DNA from: a virus
Reading direction: 5' to 3' (one strand)
Length of the DNA: 63,299 nt
Virus record (IMG/VR): IMGVR_UViG_3300010885_073058
Span: 1-63,299 of that record
Made by a program: the position numbers and the translations under genes. Below, in pieces: positions 44,765 through 54,409 of the stretch (positions are counted from its first letter, which is position 1; the number at the start of each line of letters is the position of its first letter). The notes beneath the pieces were generated by a model that made no database searches, was not told where the DNA came from, and saw only the letters and a program-made list of their open reading frames with translations.

Positions 44765-47164
44765 ATGTCATTTATCAAGCTGCAGCCTGAGAACTTCGAT
44801 TCGTTCTCTCTCACGCTGCGGCCTCGCGCCGAGTTTGTGTCGTCTTCAAGCGGGATCACAGGATCAGTTCGGCTGATAGAGCGCCCGAGCTCCTATCTTA
44901 AGGAAGAAATTGCCATAGGCGCGAGAGGGACGACAGAGTTTGTAGAAGATCCTGCAGGTCCTGCATATATCGAGTCACTGAGGCAGGACATAATTGCTAA
45001 TACTACAGATCGACCTGCTCTTCTATCTGATTACATTCGTCTTGTAAATCTCTTAGCTGAGAGTAGGAAAAACGACATCGTCAGTCCTGTCCAGAGAATA
45101 ACACAGTCGATCGACTTTGATCGCAACTCATTTACTAAAAGTATCATCAAGAACGTGCTGATGCCTCAGTACCGATCTGTCTACACAGATTGCGACTACT
45201 CTTATAAGAATTATCACACGATCAACTTCTTCACAGCGTCGTCTGTTCCCAGTGATAGTGCGATCATCTATCCCAATATTAATGATCAATACACACTGAC
45301 AGATGCTTTTAGCTTTGACTTCTATATCAATCCCAGGTATCTTGCAGATGCTGGTGCTTCTTTTAGCGCAGGCGCAATCTTGCACATGTCTTCGTCGCTG
45401 TGTGTATCTCTTTTAACAGGTTCAAACAAGAACGCAGACGGTCAAGTTGATCAATTTCGTCTTGCTGTTGGTTTTAAACACAGCGCAAACGTCTCACCTA
45501 GTAGCATTAATGCTGCTCAAGCTAACGGCTCAAGAACATATCCTCAAGATCTAGTCTACGTCAGTGACGACAATCTTTTGAAGAATAACAACTGGCACCA
45601 TGTCTCAATTCGCTGGGGTTCGGCATACAACAACGGAACAGGATCATTTACTGTTGACTCCACAACATCGTCTTTCTACTATCCAAGCAGCTCAATTGTG
45701 GGAAGCCAAAAGCCTGACGTAGTCATCTTAGGAAATCAGTATATTGGCAGCGATGACACAGCTAAGTTTTTTAACAGTGTAGTTGCTAATTCTCTCAATG
45801 GAGAAGGCGTAACGCAGCGAGACACAGGCACAACAGATCCTGTCGGATTTACATTTTCAAGCCCACTCAATGCCGAAATACATGAAGTCAAAATTTTCAA
45901 TAGAGTACTGACAAATACAGAAGTTAGTTATTACAGAACAAATGGTGCCGATATTGGCACATCTGGATTGATTTTTTACGTTCCTCCTTATTTCACAAAT
46001 TTTAGTGTAAGAACACAATTAGATTATGTTACACCCATTGCAAAAAGTATTTTTTTACCTGGAACTCCTTCGACAATAGTTCCACGTACTCCATTCAATA
46101 TACCACTTGCTTTGGGCACGCAAGTTTTTTCGCCAAATCTTCAAAATTTCTTATTTGATCAAGTTGCAAGTTCACCAGAACGTGTTAGAGCAAGTAGCGT
46201 TAACTATGCGCCTCGTCTCTTTAAATTGACAGGCAGTATAAACACATCATACACAGCAGGAGATTACGCAATTGATCATCTTTTCGAAGATCCTGCATTC
46301 ATTAAACGTGCTTATACGATACTTCCATGTGATAATGGTTTTTTGTCACCTAACTATAACCTCCTCGTAAGCGCGTCAGATGGTGTATACAATCAATTTT
46401 TATCTCAAGCAGGCAATGATGTTACGTCAATATCACTTTTAAACATAGACACGACTCTAAATCCAACATCACTAGGTACAGGATCTATTGATTTAATCAC
46501 TAATTTTTTAACACCTAATAATTTTGGATTTGATGCAACATACTACAGCGGCGGAGCTCGAGGACGTCTAGGAACAGTTACATCACTCTTTTCTTTCAAT
46601 ACAACGTCGTCTTTTGCTGACATATCAAGCAACCTCTCGACGATCTACCAGGTTAGCAATCTCTACTACGGCAATCAGATCTTCCCACAGTCATTTACTT
46701 TGTCGTCAACAGCATTGACAGGATCTGGCGGAAAGATCAACATCACGCTTAAGGACAACGGCTTTGGAGGCCTCTATCGCGCAGATGCGGTCACACCCCC
46801 GCCGGCATGGGCGACCGTAGGTAACCTCTTCTATGATGAGGGACTTGCCATTATCAAGTCACCCCACCTCTACTACTTCGGTAAGGATAATTTCTCTGTC
46901 TCGTTCAATGGGTCGCAGAATATCCACACATATACCATAGATGCTATCTGTCCAGCTGGAGAGATCAACTCATCATCAAATCCGAGTTACCTATCATTCC
47001 CGCCTACAAATGAACAGAATGAAACGGCAGATAACTTCGTATACATCACAGGCATCAATATTCACGACGACAACTTCAACGTTATTATGAGAGCAAACCT
47101 GGCACAACCAGTACTCAAGAGGCCCGATGAAGAATTTCTCTTTAGAATCAAGTACGACATGTGA
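44765..47164 (+). CDS. Large tail protein with LamG-like domain and shared C-terminal domain
   Basis: The 799-residue protein has an N-terminal part, a LamG-like domain at about residues 165-400 (FSFDFYINPRYLAD, NNWHHVSIRWGSAYNNGTG and AEIHEVKIFNRVLTNTEV) and a C-terminal domain (about 680-799) matching that of the preceding 397-residue protein: NLFYDEGLAIIKS, INSSSNPSYLS, FVYITGINIHDDNFNVIM and EFLFRIKYDM. GAAGGAGAAAG precedes the ATG. The LamG part likely binds glycan, and the C-terminal part docks it to the tail. It overlaps the resolvase gene by 38 bases. Confidence 0.65.
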   Translation: MSFIKLQPENFDSFSLTLRPRAEFVSSSSGITGSVRLIERPSSYLKEEIAIGARGTTEFVEDPAGPAYIESLRQDIIANTTDRPALLSDYIRLVNLLAESRKNDIVSPVQRITQSIDFDRNSFTKSIIKNVLMPQYRSVYTDCDYSYKNYHTINFFTASSVPSDSAIIYPNINDQYTLTDAFSFDFYINPRYLADAGASFSAGAILHMSSSLCVSLLTGSNKNADGQVDQFRLAVGFKHSANVSPSSINAAQANGSRTYPQDLVYVSDDNLLKNNNWHHVSIRWGSAYNNGTGSFTVDSTTSSFYYPSSSIVGSQKPDVVILGNQYIGSDDTAKFFNSVVANSLNGEGVTQRDTGTTDPVGFTFSSPLNAEIHEVKIFNRVLTNTEVSYYRTNGADIGTSGLIFYVPPYFTNFSVRTQLDYVTPIAKSIFLPGTPSTIVPRTPFNIPLALGTQVFSPNLQNFLFDQVASSPERVRASSVNYAPRLFKLTGSINTSYTAGDYAIDHLFEDPAFIKRAYTILPCDNGFLSPNYNLLVSASDGVYNQFLSQAGNDVTSISLLNIDTTLNPTSLGTGSIDLITNFLTPNNFGFDATYYSGGARGRLGTVTSLFSFNTTSSFADISSNLSTIYQVSNLYYGNQIFPQSFTLSSTALTGSGGKINITLKDNGFGGLYRADAVTPPPAWATVGNLFYDEGLAIIKSPHLYYFGKDNFSVSFNGSQNIHTYTIDAICPAGEINSSSNPSYLSFPPTNEQNETADNFVYITGINIHDDNFNVIMRANLAQPVLKRPDEEFLFRIKYDM

Positions 47165-47687
47165 CACGATCCTCGGGCTTGACATCTCAACGTCCTGCAC
47201 CGGTTACGCGATTGTGACGACAGACGTGGGTAAGGTAGTTGAGGTAGGAAATTTTAAACTTGATAAGTTTGATGACTTCTTTGACAAGTGTGACTCATAT
47301 AGGGCAGCCCTTGCAGCAGTATCCGCCAGACACGTGGGTATCAAGAAGATCTGCATCGAGGAGAACTTACAGGCATTCCGCCCGGGCATGTCATCTGCCA
47401 AGACGATCAATACACTCGCGCGATTCAATGGAGCTGCCTCGCTGATCGCCTACGAAGTTTGTAGGTCGAAGCCCATCTTTCTCAATGCCACTTCAGCGAG
47501 GTCAAAGCTGGGCATCAAGCTTGACCGCAAGTCAGACGTGTCCACGAAGCAGCAGATCTTTGAGTTCGTGAAGCCTCAAATTGACATTGAGTGGCCCACC
47601 ACGAGGACGGGCGGCGTCCAAACATCTTGCTACGACATGGCAGATGCATACGTGCTAGCTCGCGCAGGCTGGTTGAACAAAGAGTAG
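47127..47687 (+). CDS. RuvC-like Holliday junction resolvase/RNase H-fold nuclease
   Basis: The 186-residue product has the RNase H-fold catalytic acids in RuvC order: ILGLDISTSCTGYAI near residues 15-29 (first Asp), KKICIEENLQAF near 73-84 (Glu) and SCYDMADAYVLARAGW near 167-182 (last Asp pair). It should cut branched DNA before packaging, the role of endonuclease VII in T4, which is a different fold. The ATG at 47127 lies 38 bases inside the previous gene; no better in-frame start precedes the first motif. It opens the DNA module. Confidence 0.8.
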   Translation: MKNFSLESSTTCDTILGLDISTSCTGYAIVTTDVGKVVEVGNFKLDKFDDFFDKCDSYRAALAAVSARHVGIKKICIEENLQAFRPGMSSAKTINTLARFNGAASLIAYEVCRSKPIFLNATSARSKLGIKLDRKSDVSTKQQIFEFVKPQIDIEWPTTRTGGVQTSCYDMADAYVLARAGWLNKE

Positions 47688-48685: not shown

Positions 48686-49045
48686 ATGCCCAGAAATCTA
48701 AAACTTCGACGCGTCATTCTCAAAGAGATGGCTGATATACTTGCTGATGATGCTCTCTTTACAACAATGTCACATCAAGACGACTCTCCTGTCGGAAATA
48801 TTGAAGATGAGACTGTAGACGAGGGCGGCGACTGCGGTTGCGGCTGCGGCGGAGCGCCTGGAGGCTGCAGTGACAAGAAGCGTGGAACTGTTACGGCAAC
48901 AGCACTCTTCAAGAGAGGTCTCTATGAGATCATCGAGGACGCGATCGGTGTCTACGACCAATACGATGACGCTGATCAGATAAGCGATGAGATGATCGCA
49001 GAGATAGAGCACTTCAGCAACAAACTCAAGGCCTTTAGGAACTAA
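48686..49045 (+). CDS. Small protein with Cys/Gly cluster and head-protein-like N-terminus
   Basis: The 119-residue product starts MPRNLKLRRVILKEMADIL, an amphipathic helix like those of the small head-core-like proteins at 57926 and 58501. It then has a Gly/Cys-rich run, DCGCGCGGAPGGC (about residues 50-62), which could bind metal. It ends in a helical domain (ALFKRGLYEIIEDAIGVYDQY and then a second helix). The LKE in the first helix fits the (L/I)-x-E cleavage pattern of T4 prohead proteases. I do not recognise a named family. It lies between primase and recombination nuclease genes. Confidence 0.5.
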   Translation: MPRNLKLRRVILKEMADILADDALFTTMSHQDDSPVGNIEDETVDEGGDCGCGCGGAPGGCSDKKRGTVTATALFKRGLYEIIEDAIGVYDQYDDADQISDEMIAEIEHFSNKLKAFRN

Positions 49046-49083: not shown

Positions 49084-52000
49084 ATGAAAGCGTTCCATAT
49101 CTCAGACATCCATTTTAGAGGCCTGTCTCGACATGACGAGTATAGGAAGTGTTTCACTAGATTGTTCGACATTGCGCGGAAGGAGAAGCCAGATGTCTTC
49201 TTTGTCGGTGGTGACATTGTTCACTCAAAGACGCAAGGCATCACACCAGAGCTGATTGATATTCTGTCTTGGTGCTTTGAGACTATGGCAGAGATCGCGC
49301 CTGTCCATATGATCCTAGGCAATCATGACGGCCTCATCCACAACAAGAGCCGTCAAGATGCGATCACACCCATCATCAATGCGCTAGGCAACAAGCGCAT
49401 CTATCTATACAAGAAGTCAGGTGTTTATCCAACAGGTCTGCCTGGCATTAACTGGTGTGTCTTTTCGTGCTTTGACGAGGAGGGGTGGGACGATGTCAAG
49501 CCCGTCAAGGGTGAGATTAACATCGCGTGCTTCCACGGTGCAGTACGTGGGTCATCGACTGACTCCGACTGGAAGATCAACGGTGAAGTGACTGCAAGCT
49601 TCTTTGATGAGTTTGACTACACTTTCCTGGGTGACATCCACAAGCGTCAAAATGTCACAGGTGTCGGTGTCATCGCGTATCCTGGTTCGTTCATCCAGCA
49701 GGATTACGGTGAGGATGTTATCAAGGGCTGCCTGCTGTGGGATATTAAGTCAGCAGTCGATTACAGCTGTAAGTTCATCCACATTATTAATGACTCACCA
49801 TTTGTAACAATTGGTTACCGCGGTGATCTTGATGAAACTTACCAGATGATCGACGGCGCACCTGCAGGTGCACGTGTCCGAATTGGCTCTGATGTTCCAG
49901 TGCCTCCTACAACTCTGCACCTCATTGAATCGAAGCTGCAAGCTGAGAAGTCTCCGAAAGAGATTGTCTATAAGATCGCAGATCTAGACGCTGGAAAAAG
50001 CCTTGCAAAGACAAGTGGAACACCTGTAACAGATCTCAGGCAGCCTAGCACAATCAAAGAGCTGATTCGCGACTTCTATGCTGACTCAGCGTTACCAAAA
50101 GACAAGTTTGAGCGTGTCGATGCAATTGTCGACAGGTACATGAAGTCACTTGATTTGGGCGGAGATGAGGATCGAAACTACAGCTGGTCACTTGATAAGC
50201 TGACTTTTAGGAACACATTTGCGTTCCGCGGCGACAATGAGATCGACTTTACCAAGTCATCAGGCATCACGGGTATCTTTGGCAAGAACCGTGCTGGAAA
50301 GTCATCCATCATTGGCAGCCTTGTCTACTGTCTCTTCAACACATCAGATAGAGGATCCCTCAAGAACCTCCACATCATCAATGATAAGGAGGACACATGC
50401 GATGCAGAAGCAGACATTACAGTAAAGGGCGACAAGTATAAGATTTCTCGCAGAACTAAGAAGACGGTCAATAAGAAGGGCGATGTCAACGTCAACACGA
50501 CCCTGGGCATCACAAAGCTTGACACGGATATGCAGCTAAGTGACGTCTCAGATGAACAGCGTCGTGAGACAGAGAAAGTGCTGCGACAGCTAATTGGAAC
50601 TGCAGATGATTTCTTCATGACATCGCTTGCAGCTCAAGGCAACCTCAATAAGTTCTTTGAGGAGAAGTCGACCGCTCGGAAGCAGATCATTGGAAAGTTT
50701 CTTAATCTTGATATTTTTGACGCGCTTTATGAGCGGTCACGCGAGGATCTTGTGCCACTTCGTGCCTCATTTAGAGGGCGACGTGACAAGCAGCAGATTG
50801 ATGCAAAAATTGCTGATGCTGTTAAGATGCTAGCAGTTGAGAGAGAGAAAACTTCTGAACTTGACAATGCGCACAGCGATCTTACTAGGAAGCTAGCAGA
50901 TCTACGTGTCATCATCAACGGTGACACATCAGTCGAAGCAGCTGTTAAGCTACGTGAGCTCGAGCAGCGCAGGGATCGTCTTGCTGATAAGCGCAAGGAT
51001 CATGCATCTCAAATTGAAGATGCTAGCACGCTACGCTCTAAGCACACAGTGCGTCTTGAGAAATTCAGCGCACTGAAGGAAAAATTTCCTATTGATGAAC
51101 TTCGACAGAAAGTTCAATCACAAAGGTCGCTAGAGACTAAGCTTGAAGCTGCGAATAGAGAGCTGCAGCAGCATCTTAAATCTCTAGGAAGACTGAATGA
51201 AGATGTTGGAATTCTATCAACAGTTCCATGCGGTGATGAATTTCCAACGTGTCCATTCATCAAGAAGGCATTTGAGAGCAAATCAAAGATTGGCCAGGAA
51301 CAACTAGAAGTTGAAGAGCAGCGGAAGTACATCAAGCAGCTTCAATCTGTTATTAATGAAATAGCCGAGCAAAATCTTGACGAAAAGGTCAAGAAATACG
51401 ACTTAATGCTCCAGGAAGAGCGAACACTGCAGTTTGATGTTAGTAAGCTTGACCTGAAGATTGAGCATGCAGAGACGTCACTCAAGACTGTCGACGGTGA
51501 TCTTGATACATGTAATCTTGAAATTGATCGTCTTAGCGCAGTTGTTAAAGACTCAGACAACTTGTGTGGCGTCTATGACAGTATCAAAGAAGTAGAAGAA
51601 GAGCTTGAGAAGACACGTAAATTGCAGCTCACAAATGCAAAGAACGTCGGTGCTCATGAGACATCGATAACAACACTTCAGAGCGAGAAAGAGACACTTG
51701 AGCGTGATCTTGCAGACCTCGAGATCTTTGAGCTGTTTAATGTTGCAATGTCAAAGAAGGGCCTCCCGTCACGTCTAATCTCTAAACTACTTCCTCTAGT
51801 CAATGCTGAGATCCAGAACATTCTGCTCGGTGTCTGTAATTTCACAGTCGAGCTTGAGGTGGACGAGGAGTCGAACTCACTTGAAGTTTACATTAACTAC
51901 GGTGACAAGCGACGGATAATTGAGCTAGGCTCAGGAATGGAAAAGATGATCTCTGCAATTGCAACAAGAGTTGCTCTCATCAATATGTCATCTTTGCCTA

Positions 52001-52203
52001 AATCCAACATCTTCATCATTGATGAAGGGTTCGGTGCTCTTGATGATACCAACCTTGAAGCATGTTCACGCCTCCTGCGGTCACTGAAGAAGCACTTTAA
52101 CCAGATCCTTATCATCTCACACGTGGATGCAATTAAGGATGCAGTTGATAACTTTGTTGAGATCAATTGGATTGATGGAGGCGCAAGTGTCAGATACTCC
52201 TGA
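49084..52203 (+). CDS. Fused SbcD-SbcC-type recombination nuclease (gp47 and gp46 in one chain)
   Basis: A single 1039-residue chain carries both subunits. The first part (about residues 1-340) is an Mre11/gp47-type metallophosphoesterase: HISDIHFRG near 5-13, VGGDIVHSK near 40-48, LGNHDG near 78-83 and FLGDIHKRQ near 181-189. The second (about 365-1039) is a Rad50/gp46-type ATPase: Walker A in GIFGKNRAGKSS near 396-407, long coiled coils with a C-x6-C hook (CGDEFPTC near 716), a signature LGSGMEKM near 946 and Walker B IFIIDEGFGALDD near 975. It resects DNA ends for recombination-dependent replication. T4 has these as separate genes, so the fusion is unusual. No frameshift or internal stop is seen. 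Confidence 0.85.
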   Translation: MKAFHISDIHFRGLSRHDEYRKCFTRLFDIARKEKPDVFFVGGDIVHSKTQGITPELIDILSWCFETMAEIAPVHMILGNHDGLIHNKSRQDAITPIINALGNKRIYLYKKSGVYPTGLPGINWCVFSCFDEEGWDDVKPVKGEINIACFHGAVRGSSTDSDWKINGEVTASFFDEFDYTFLGDIHKRQNVTGVGVIAYPGSFIQQDYGEDVIKGCLLWDIKSAVDYSCKFIHIINDSPFVTIGYRGDLDETYQMIDGAPAGARVRIGSDVPVPPTTLHLIESKLQAEKSPKEIVYKIADLDAGKSLAKTSGTPVTDLRQPSTIKELIRDFYADSALPKDKFERVDAIVDRYMKSLDLGGDEDRNYSWSLDKLTFRNTFAFRGDNEIDFTKSSGITGIFGKNRAGKSSIIGSLVYCLFNTSDRGSLKNLHIINDKEDTCDAEADITVKGDKYKISRRTKKTVNKKGDVNVNTTLGITKLDTDMQLSDVSDEQRRETEKVLRQLIGTADDFFMTSLAAQGNLNKFFEEKSTARKQIIGKFLNLDIFDALYERSREDLVPLRASFRGRRDKQQIDAKIADAVKMLAVEREKTSELDNAHSDLTRKLADLRVIINGDTSVEAAVKLRELEQRRDRLADKRKDHASQIEDASTLRSKHTVRLEKFSALKEKFPIDELRQKVQSQRSLETKLEAANRELQQHLKSLGRLNEDVGILSTVPCGDEFPTCPFIKKAFESKSKIGQEQLEVEEQRKYIKQLQSVINEIAEQNLDEKVKKYDLMLQEERTLQFDVSKLDLKIEHAETSLKTVDGDLDTCNLEIDRLSAVVKDSDNLCGVYDSIKEVEEELEKTRKLQLTNAKNVGAHETSITTLQSEKETLERDLADLEIFELFNVAMSKKGLPSRLISKLLPLVNAEIQNILLGVCNFTVELEVDEESNSLEVYINYGDKRRIIELGSGMEKMISAIATRVALINMSSLPKSNIFIIDEGFGALDDTNLEACSRLLRSLKKHFNQILIISHVDAIKDAVDNFVEINWIDGGASVRYS

Positions 52204-52433: not shown

Positions 52434-52817
52434 ATGCTTTCAATGCAACAAGTAAACACGCTCGGGCAGCTTATCGATACAACATTCGGTAAAAGCTCAA
52501 CAACAGCAGCACCAACAGTCTCAATAAAGATGACACTACAGGGCAACTCTCTCATCGTTAAGTACACAACACTAGTTCACTTTGCTTCTGAACAATCTAT
52601 GAGAGAGCAGACTAAGGAGCTTGAGCGTGCTGCCGTACAGCTAACAAAGAAATCAATTGATCAAGTTGAGAAAGATTTCAAGAGAATTGAAGGTAAGACG
52701 CTCAATCTCAAGAAGAAGACAACTGACAATGGCATCGAGCTGATTAGCATGTCACCTTACAATCCACGTAAGGTCGCCTACTATAGATTTAATACGACAT
52801 ATGAAATCGATGTATGA
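52434..52817 (+). CDS. Conserved-looking hypothetical protein before the terminase
   Basis: The 127-residue product has PTVSIKMTLQGNSLIVKYTTLVHF near residues 27-50 (a beta hairpin), a central helix EQTKELERAAVQLTKKSIDQVEKDF and a C-terminal KVAYYRFNTTYEIDV. No metal or nucleotide motif is present. AGAGGA precedes the ATG. It overlaps the terminase start (ATGA), so it may help packaging. A terminase small subunit (gp16) would be expected in this place in T4, but the beta-rich fold does not obviously match it. Confidence 0.5.
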   Translation: MLSMQQVNTLGQLIDTTFGKSSTTAAPTVSIKMTLQGNSLIVKYTTLVHFASEQSMREQTKELERAAVQLTKKSIDQVEKDFKRIEGKTLNLKKKTTDNGIELISMSPYNPRKVAYYRFNTTYEIDV

Positions 52818-54409
52818 ATACGAGCAACAAGTCAAGACAAGTATCTGAGATTATACGATGTGGCAAGGATCCTGCGTATTTTTTCAATAACTATGTAAAG
52901 ATCCAGCATCCAACAAGAGGAACGATTCCATTTAAGACGTTCCCATTTCAAGATGACTGTGTCAATGACTTCATAGAAAATCGATTTACAGTCATTGTTA
53001 AGAGTCGACAGCTTGGATTGTCGACGCTCGTTGCAGCTTACTCTGTTTGGCTCGCGCTGTTCCAGAAAGATAAGAACATCCTCATCATTGCAACTAAACT
53101 TGGCGTCGCTCAGAACTTCATCAAGAAAGTAAAAACGATGGTTAGCAATCTTCCGCCATGGATGGTTCTACCGCAGATTACACTGAACAATCGTCAACTG
53201 ATAGAGTTTAGTCACGGATCTTCGATCAAGGCAGTGCCCACGTCAGAAGATGCAGGTCGTTCTGAGTCGTTGTCTCTTCTGATCATTGACGAGGCAGCAT
53301 TTGTTAGAAACTTTGACGAGCTGTGGACAGGCTTGTATCCTACGATCTCAACAGGTGGTCGTGCCATTGTGCTTTCAACACCCAATGGTGTTGGAGGACA
53401 GTATTACAAGCTTTTCACTGAGGCAGAATCAGGACTGAACGAATTTAAATCCATTCGATTGAACTGGGACGTCCACCCAGAGCGCAATCAAGAGTGGTTC
53501 GAGAAGGAAACGAGAAATCTGTCAACCAAAGAGATCGCGCAGGAGTACCTGTGTGACTTCGCCGCATCAGGTGAGACGTTCCTCAATGACGACGATATTA
53601 AGTGGATTAGCAAGATTATACGCCCACCAATCGACCGCGGAGGCCCAGATAGAAATGTCTGGATTTGGAAGCATGCGCTTACTGAGCACAAGTACATCAT
53701 TTCTGCTGACGTTGCAAGAGGCGATGGAAAAGACTACTCAACTTTTCATGTTATTGACGGCACTGAAGGTGAAGTAGTTGCTGAGTATAAGGGCAAGATT
53801 GCACCTGATAAGTTTGGTGAACTCTTAAATGAGTATGGATTACTGTACAATAAAGCACTAATGTGCCCAGAGAATAACTCATTTGGATACGCAACCATAG
53901 TCAAGCTTAAAGATCTAGGTTACCCAAAGATGTACTACAATAAGAACAAGTCTGTCTACATCGGCGACTATGTTCCTCCTGCTGAGACGGAGCTTGCAGG
54001 TTTTACAACGAGCGGTAAGTCAAGAAACCAGATCCTCACCAAGCTTGAGGAGATCATTAGAAACAAACAACTTCTAATATACTCATCTCGCTTCTATGAA
54101 GAACTAAAGACGTTTGTCTGGAATGAGAACAAAGCTCAAGCAATGAAGGGAGAGAACGACGATCTTATTCTCTCGTTGGCAATTGGAACTTGGTTGTACG
54201 ATGCATCAAATGACTACAGCAAGGACTCAGACAAACTAAATAATGCGATGCTTGCTGCGATGGGTTTTAAGAACAAGCAATTTAATGGTGCGTCAAACGA
54301 CGTAATATCAAACAAGCATCATCAAGAGATAAATCGTGATCGTGCATTGCGTGGACACGCACGCCCTCTGGGAATACCCCCTGAGTTTGCGTGGGTGTAC
54401 AAGAACTAG
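52814..54409 (+). CDS. 17: Large terminase subunit, gp17-like
   Basis: The 531-residue protein has an N-terminal packaging ATPase with a Walker A-like KSRQLGLSTLVAAYS near residues 60-74 and Walker B LLIIDEAAF near 155-163, then the coupling motif LSTPNG near 191-196. A C-terminal RNase H-fold nuclease has ISADVARGDGKDYSTFHVID near 295-314, MCPENNSFG and ENDDLILSLAIG near 446-457. The Asp residues in the first and last segments would bind metal. It cuts the concatemer and drives DNA into the prohead. T4 gp17 is 610 residues. The portal gene follows directly. Confidence 0.93.
   Translation: MNTSNKSRQVSEIIRCGKDPAYFFNNYVKIQHPTRGTIPFKTFPFQDDCVNDFIENRFTVIVKSRQLGLSTLVAAYSVWLALFQKDKNILIIATKLGVAQNFIKKVKTMVSNLPPWMVLPQITLNNRQLIEFSHGSSIKAVPTSEDAGRSESLSLLIIDEAAFVRNFDELWTGLYPTISTGGRAIVLSTPNGVGGQYYKLFTEAESGLNEFKSIRLNWDVHPERNQEWFEKETRNLSTKEIAQEYLCDFAASGETFLNDDDIKWISKIIRPPIDRGGPDRNVWIWKHALTEHKYIISADVARGDGKDYSTFHVIDGTEGEVVAEYKGKIAPDKFGELLNEYGLLYNKALMCPENNSFGYATIVKLKDLGYPKMYYNKNKSVYIGDYVPPAETELAGFTTSGKSRNQILTKLEEIIRNKQLLIYSSRFYEELKTFVWNENKAQAMKGENDDLILSLAIGTWLYDASNDYSKDSDKLNNAMLAAMGFKNKQFNGASNDVISNKHHQEINRDRALRGHARPLGIPPEFAWVYKN

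What the first reader, a model, noticed from the sequence alone, without database searches (positions are those of the whole stretch)
49084..52203. gp47 and gp46 recombination nuclease subunits fused in one gene
Seen: one uninterrupted frame of 1039 codons with Mre11-type phosphoesterase motifs (SDIH, GGD, GNHD, GDIH) followed by Walker A, hook C-x6-C, signature and Walker B of a Rad50-type ATPase. Known: in T4 and cells these are two proteins in a complex of two of each. A fusion fixes 1:1 ratio and would force a particular dimer geometry. The hook is C-x6-C rather than the usual C-x2-C.
Basis: partly seen in the sequence, partly recalled or inferred. Interest (0 to 1): 0.65.

Follow-up and report, generated by a model that had tools for sequence, protein, structure and literature searches.

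The report
Single-chain phage DNA-end repair nuclease
A bacterial virus makes its DNA-end-trimming nuclease and the ATP-driven motor that controls it as one long protein; such fusions have been known since 2011, but this one belongs to a large virus family with an unusual zinc-hook tip, and in some relatives the same gene has been cut again in a different place by a mobile DNA-cutting element.

Summary
In detail: window 49084-52203 is one open frame of 1039 codons. It encodes an SbcD/Mre11-type phosphoesterase, a helix-loop-helix, an 11-residue linker and an SbcC/Rad50-type ATPase whose coiled coil ends in C716-x6-C723. It is not an assembly error: independent IMG/VR contigs 96-97% identical, and a 77% relative, keep the seam open. 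More than 60 full-length fused relatives were read, down to 22% identity.

The fusion is not new. Yoshida, Claverie and Ogata (2011) described Mre11/Rad50 fusions in Mimivirus R555, a Bacillus phage, plasmids and aquatic, mostly phage, metagenomes. The window protein shares R555's two active-site substitutions (GDxxH and GDIH), and giant-virus fusions are its best viral fold matches. The linker fits the canonical complex, so no new geometry is needed.

That paper does not mention the hook: C-x6-C in 38 of 38 aligned relatives and in 55 of 55 found without using the hook.

Outside the window, 31 distinct relatives have the gene broken inside the nuclease domain after GDIH, with conserved protein tails and, in some, a homing-endonuclease gene or its remnants. 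This looks like recurrent "genes-in-pieces" fission.

Verdict: a real member of a known kind, with a variant hook.

The parts
49084..52203 (+). fused SbcD/Mre11 - SbcC/Rad50 gene, 1039 codons
   Evidence: seam intact in relatives
49084..49782 (+). calcineurin-like phosphoesterase (nuclease) domain, residues 1-233; metal-site motifs DxH, GDxxH, GNHD, H151, GDIH
   Evidence: Pfam PF00149; invariant columns; fold match to SbcD 7dog/4lu9, Z 25.9/25.6 over residues 1-299
49801..49977 (+). capping-type domain, residues 240-298
   Evidence: model secondary structure; SbcD alignment runs to residue 299
50044..50148 (+). helix-loop-helix (Rad50-binding type), residues 321-355
   Evidence: model helices 321-331 and 339-355; assignment by position, inferred
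50149..50181 (+). linker at the seam, residues 356-366; next to it the (R/K)(N/G)xxW368 motif
   Evidence: W368 invariant in 38 of 38
50281..50304 (+). Walker A GKNRAGKS, residues 400-407
50710..51222 (+). ascending coiled-coil arm, residues 543-713
51229..51252 (+). variant hook C716-x6-C723 (CGDEFPTC)
   Evidence: C716 and C723 invariant in 38 of 38; 55 of 55 in a census not seeded on the hook
51253..51825 (+). descending coiled-coil arm, residues 724-914
51931..51945 (+). ABC signature SGMEK, residues 950-954
52009..52026 (+). Walker B region ending in D980-E981, residues 976-981
47127..47687 (+). neighbour: RuvC-like Holliday-junction resolvase
   Evidence: PHROG 159/827; same order in L147
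47708..48670 (+). neighbour: DnaG-type primase
   Evidence: PHROG 47, E 4.8e-40
52814..54409 (+). neighbour: T4-type large terminase
   Evidence: PF03237
54391..56463 (+). neighbour: T4-type portal protein
   Evidence: PF07230, E 6.9e-79

Best explanation
The gene encodes a single-chain Mre11-Rad50 (SbcDC) nuclease-ATPase of the family of Mimivirus R555, carried by a T4-related tailed phage. Each chain supplies one nuclease, one capping domain, one helix-loop-helix and one ABC ATPase with a coiled coil; two chains dimerise into the usual two-nuclease, two-ATPase particle. ATP binding closes the two ATPase heads over a DNA end, hydrolysis opens the nuclease site, and the enzyme trims the end or cleaves hairpins, so that the phage RecA-type protein can start recombination-dependent replication. 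The fusion fixes the 1:1 ratio but leaves the canonical geometry available because the linker is long enough. The coiled coils meet through a C-x6-C tip that most likely still binds one metal ion between two chains. Shown: the frame, its conservation, motifs, folds, gene order, and a recA gene in near relatives. Inferred: dimer form, nuclease activity, role in replication, metal at the hook.
For: One frame with both halves. Seam open in independent contigs and in over 60 full-length relatives. Nuclease and ATPase motifs invariant or nearly so. Rad50 half matches E. coli SbcC, Z 32.6; nuclease half matches SbcD, Z 25.9. Helix-loop-helix and 11-residue linker fit the 9-12 residues calculated in PMC3175470. 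GDxxH and GDIH are the two departures reported for R555 and are invariant here. Best viral fold matches are giant-virus fusions, e.g. Tupanvirus E 1.8e-60. Gene order RuvC, primase, fusion, 125/127-aa protein, terminase, portal is the same in a 41%-identical phage contig. RecA (PF00154, E about 1e-62) in the 164 kb and 123 kb relatives. No second Rad50-type ATPase found in four relatives.
Against: No biochemistry. Model pTM is only 0.48, so how the nuclease half sits on the ATPase half is not established. The relatives tested for a second Rad50 are incomplete contigs. H206-to-D (GDIH) and GDxxH could alter metal use or activity.
Confidence: 0.85

Rival explanations
1. The frame is an assembly or base-calling error that joins two normal genes.
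For: The sequence is from a metagenome. An isolate record, Listeria phage LMTA-57, shows what a recent or spurious join looks like: its fused frame still carries AGGAGG and an ATG at the Rad50 start.
Against: Independent contigs from different samples, and relatives down to 22% identity, share the fused frame and the linker. No conserved internal start.
Confidence: 0.01
2. A fused precursor that is processed, or an internal start, yields separate Rad50 as well as the fusion.
For: An ATG (M353) lies at the end of the helix-loop-helix in the window.
Against: M at 353 in 6 of 38 relatives only, and no strong ribosome-binding site before it. The linker keeps its length and the invariant W368 follows it.
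Confidence: 0.06
3. The fusion is not the phage's recombination nuclease but mainly degrades host DNA or acts against other DNA.
For: T4 gp46/47 also take part in host DNA breakdown (note in the T4 record).
Against: Sits between primase, resolvase and packaging genes; no second Rad50 in four related contigs.
Confidence: 0.08
4. The C-x6-C tip is not a metal hook but a disulphide or a plain coiled-coil apex (compatible with the rest of the best explanation).
For: Spacing differs from CxxC; T4, S-SSM7 and Goe7 have CPTC or CPVC.
Against: Both cysteines and the P, G, D, P, T, F, I and K around them are invariant; an unfused phage SbcC (MTATph1) has a similar C-x7-C; the Cys are at the apex of the modelled coil.
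Confidence: 0.3

Closest known systems
Mimivirus R555 and the Mre11/Rad50 fusion proteins of Yoshida, Claverie and Ogata 2011 (PMC3175470)
   Same: Mre11 before Rad50 in one chain, capping and helix-loop-helix kept, short linker, GDxxH and D for His206; abundant in aquatic viral fractions, mostly on phage-like scaffolds
   Different: shorter (1039 against 1351 aa); in a T4-related phage; C-x6-C hook, which that paper does not discuss
T4 gp47/gp46
   Same: same domains and expected role in recombination-dependent replication; T4-type terminase and portal nearby
   Different: two genes in T4, with two small genes between; T4 gp46 is 560 aa with a CPTC hook
E. coli SbcCD
   Same: folds of both halves; long coiled coil
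   Different: two proteins; about 20% identity in the fold alignment
Microcystis phage Mel-JY01 WWT39521.1
   Same: fused over its whole length, 28% identity over the aligned span, primase beside it
   Different: KCKHCC hook with C-x2-C
Genes-in-pieces: phage Aeh1 nrdA, phage 25 gene 43, T4 gene 60 (PMC2988022)
   Same: mechanism proposed for the split relatives found here: a homing endonuclease breaks a gene into two working pieces
   Different: here the gene is the SbcD half of a fusion and the break is after the GDIH metal motif; the window gene itself is not split

Membership tests
R555-like Mre11/Rad50 fusion | Mre11-type domain N-terminal to Rad50-type domain in one frame | tested here: met
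R555-like Mre11/Rad50 fusion | capping and helix-loop-helix region kept, linker of about 9-12 residues | tested here: met
   contact of the helix-loop-helix with the coil root not tested
R555-like Mre11/Rad50 fusion | GDxxH in place of GDxxD and Asp in place of P. furiosus His206 | tested here: met
   H47 and D184 invariant in 38 relatives; R555 values
R555-like Mre11/Rad50 fusion | groups with R555 in a tree | not tested
   R555 itself was not at hand; giant-virus fusions are the best viral fold matches
Mre11/SbcD nuclease | five phosphoesterase metal motifs | tested here: met
   present and conserved, with the two substitutions above
Mre11/SbcD nuclease | Mn-dependent nuclease activity | not testable with these tools
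   needs protein
Rad50/SbcC ATPase | Walker A, signature, Walker B and H-loop around a long coiled coil | tested here: met
Canonical zinc-hook Rad50 | CxxC at the coil apex | tested here: not met
   C-x6-C; so not filed as a canonical zinc-hook Rad50, though it may work like one
T4 gp46/gp47 | two separate subunits | tested here: not met
   one chain

The most novel reading that the evidence does not exclude
This viral lineage has moved the subunit boundary of the Mre11-Rad50 machine twice. It first fused the two subunits into one chain with a C-x6-C tip. Then, in many relatives, homing endonucleases landing in the codons after GDIH cut the chain again inside the nuclease domain. The result is a two-chain enzyme made of a 214-aa metal-site fragment and a capping-Rad50 fragment, held together by tails that came with the element.
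Probability: 0.65. Interest if true: 0.6.

Novelty: new variant of a known kind. Interest (0 to 1): 0.42.

Why it matters
A compact single-chain Mre11-Rad50 is a convenient object for structure and mechanism, since stoichiometry is fixed and one expression construct is enough. The uniform C-x6-C tip gives a natural test of what the zinc hook needs. The split relatives are a graded natural series of a mobile element taking an enzyme apart: a full endonuclease gene, then deleted remnants, then overlapping genes.

Tried and rejected
Assembly error: rejected. Internal start at the seam: not conserved. Cellular origin: one scan of 84,980 species genomes gave four contigs; the one checked, L147, is itself a phage contig by gene order. 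Plasmids: only distant matches confined to about the Rad50 half among the rows listed, none covering 80% of the query. Intron at the split site of relatives: no Rfam match in four loci, and compact seams leave no room for one. Intein: the tails are too short (about 24 and 12 residues). Alignments A3 and A4 misplaced parts of the split genes and were not used; A5 was. In the first tree L063 and L122 were wrongly labelled split; the corrected tree is. No paper found on a C-x6-C Rad50 hook or a split phage SbcD, but only open-licence papers were searched.

Full report
OBSERVATION. The frame at 49084-52203 is real and uninterrupted. Pfam and PHROGs place an SbcD/Mre11 phosphoesterase in residues 1-187 (Pfam) or 1-356 (PHROG 100) and an SbcC/Rad50 ATPase in residues 369-1037. 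The hook reads V-P-C716-G-D-E-F-P-T-C723, a C-x6-C.

IS THE FUSION REAL? The window is a 63 kb virus record. A protein search of IMG/VR gave 17 loci: eight complete copies 96-97% identical from different metagenomes, one complete copy at 77%, and partial copies. All those read are open across the seam where covered. Most complete frames with it are fused proteins of about 1,050 aa; the rest are the split form described below. 63 full-length fused frames could be collected, in 39 groups at below 85% identity. The alignment with Microcystis phage Mel-JY01 and a 735 kb metagenomic phage (A1) still covers the whole length at 26% and 22% identity. Methionines between residues 340 and 370 are not conserved. 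By contrast, the fused frame in Listeria phage LMTA-57 still holds an AGGAGG and ATG at its Rad50 start, so that record looks like a recent or spurious join.

WHAT IT IS. AlphaFold2 on an alignment of 38 sequences gave mean pLDDT 83.9 and pTM 0.48. The order is nuclease, capping domain, helix-loop-helix (321-331 and 339-355), linker (356-366), then the first Rad50 strand (367-376), and coil arms 543-713 and 724-914 with the hook between. The low pTM means relative domain placement is not established. VIA-align on the PDB matches the Rad50 half to E. coli SbcC in SbcCD (7yzo_D, Z 32.6, 352 residues, 3.2 A) and the nuclease half to SbcD (7dog_B, Z 25.9, 277 residues, 3.0 A; 4lu9_C, Z 25.6). Among viral models the best matches are giant-virus proteins of 1,343-1,389 aa (Tupanvirus, Yasminevirus, Harvfovirus), with Tenacibaculum phage proteins and LMTA-57 further down.

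PRIOR KNOWLEDGE. Yoshida, Claverie and Ogata (Virol J 2011, PMC3175470) described such fusions in Mimivirus R555 and twelve other sequences, including Bacillus phage 0305phi8-36, and argued that most metagenomic R555 homologues are viral and probably largely from phages. They reported that R555 has His for the third Asp of GDxxD and Asp for P. furiosus His206, and that a 9-12 residue linker would span the gap in the T. maritima complex. The window family has both substitutions, H47 and D184, as invariant columns, and an 11-residue linker. The window protein is therefore best filed in that family. The paper does not mention the hook.

HOOK. C716, C723 and the residues P715, G717, D718, P721, T722, F725, I726 and K727 are invariant in 38 sequences. 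Some of those loci were found by the hook pattern, so to avoid circularity loci found only by their N-terminal half were read: 55 of 55 distinct proteins with a Rad50 half have C-x6-C. T4 gp46, S-SSM7 gp46 and Bacillus phage Goe7 have C-x2-C; the unfused SbcC of Moorella phage MTATph1 has VPCNDKLKPSC, a C-x7-C. So longer spacings are not unique to this family. Within the fused group, Mel-JY01 and the 735 kb phage have C-x2-C, which suggests the C-x6-C arose inside it (inference). That it binds metal is likely but untested.

SURROUNDINGS. The order RuvC-like resolvase, DnaG-type primase, fusion, 127-aa protein, T4-type terminase, T4-type portal matches that in L147, a 41% relative. RecA is encoded in the 164 kb and 123 kb relatives, and no second Rad50-type ATPase was found in four relatives. 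This fits a T4-like role in recombination-dependent replication; that step is inference from the known biology of gp46/gp47.

SPLIT RELATIVES (outside the window). In 31 distinct loci the gene is broken between GDIHKxQ and the AYPGS strand. Piece one (about 214 aa) contains all five metal motifs and ends with a conserved tail (RDVELEIDExDLxKYPGAEVIE-like). Piece two starts with a conserved MGKKIKIKVKKPW-like head and runs through capping domain, helix-loop-helix and Rad50. The seam varies: start and stop codons overlapping by four bases (L069, L083), short gaps, 311 nt holding both ends of an endonuclease gene with its middle deleted (L178, by comparison with L182), shorter spacers, or a full endonuclease gene of about 300 codons (L182/L090: PHROG homing endonuclease, Vsr-like; L021: a different, HNH-type family). 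L035 has a similar insert uninterrupted. On a tree of the shared C-terminal part the split state needs 10 changes, at least 9 forced by well-supported branches, and near neighbours differ (L178 split, L061 and L087 fused). Recombination among phages could contribute. Tails evolve under protein-level constraint (for example pS 0.61, pN 0.05 for L083/L152), and L176/L182 tails are less diverged at silent sites than the neighbouring gene (0.22 against 0.60), as expected if tails travel with the element; these are 24-codon samples. Rfam found no intron in four loci. A model of L161 read through its stop shows strand-helix-strand in the tail and a strand in the head (192-217 and 222-231, block pLDDT about 69-85, falling after 230), suggesting that the pieces pair; that chain is artificial and its second half had few relatives in the alignment. 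Known parallels are Aeh1 nrdA, phage 25 gene 43 and T4 gene 60 (PMC2988022).

VERDICT. The finding is real. The fusion is a known kind; the uniform C-x6-C hook makes it a variant; and the most interesting new element is the second, differently placed break in relatives.

Noticed in passing
L069:1456-2100 and onward; L083:174-815 and onward; L152-L156, L158-L162, L165, L168, L169, L171, L172, L175, L176, L178, L180-L183, L193, L027, L043, L072, L100, L124: Relatives in which the fused gene is broken inside the nuclease domain after GDIH, with conserved tails on both pieces; 31 distinct seams counting L021.
   Followed up: partly
L090:38-937 (same contig as L182); L021:4656-5570: Endonuclease genes of two different families (Vsr-like homing endonuclease; HNH) sit in the seam of the split gene in distant phages.
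   Followed up: partly
L178 from 5044; L181 from 5038; L176 from 2389: Eroded copies of the seam endonuclease: both ends kept with the middle deleted, then shorter remnants.
   Followed up: partly
L035, - strand, region coding for GDIHRTQFLSYRQVKLLVSADKLHEYTGATVVG...PWIGYSGS: Uninterrupted version of the insert after GDIH in a fused gene: ancestor of the split or a re-joined one.
   Followed up: no
L020:2917-5946: Listeria phage LMTA-57 record has a fused SbcDC frame that still contains a good ribosome-binding site and ATG at the Rad50 start; possibly a recent fusion or a sequencing error.
   Followed up: no
L147, L148: Two of the four hits among species genomes are in bacterial MAGs (Halobacteriovorax, Methylococcaceae); L147 is a phage contig by gene order.
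   Followed up: partly
window 48686-49045: 119-aa ORF with a cysteine- and glycine-rich run CGCGCGGAPGGC; no family match.
   Followed up: no
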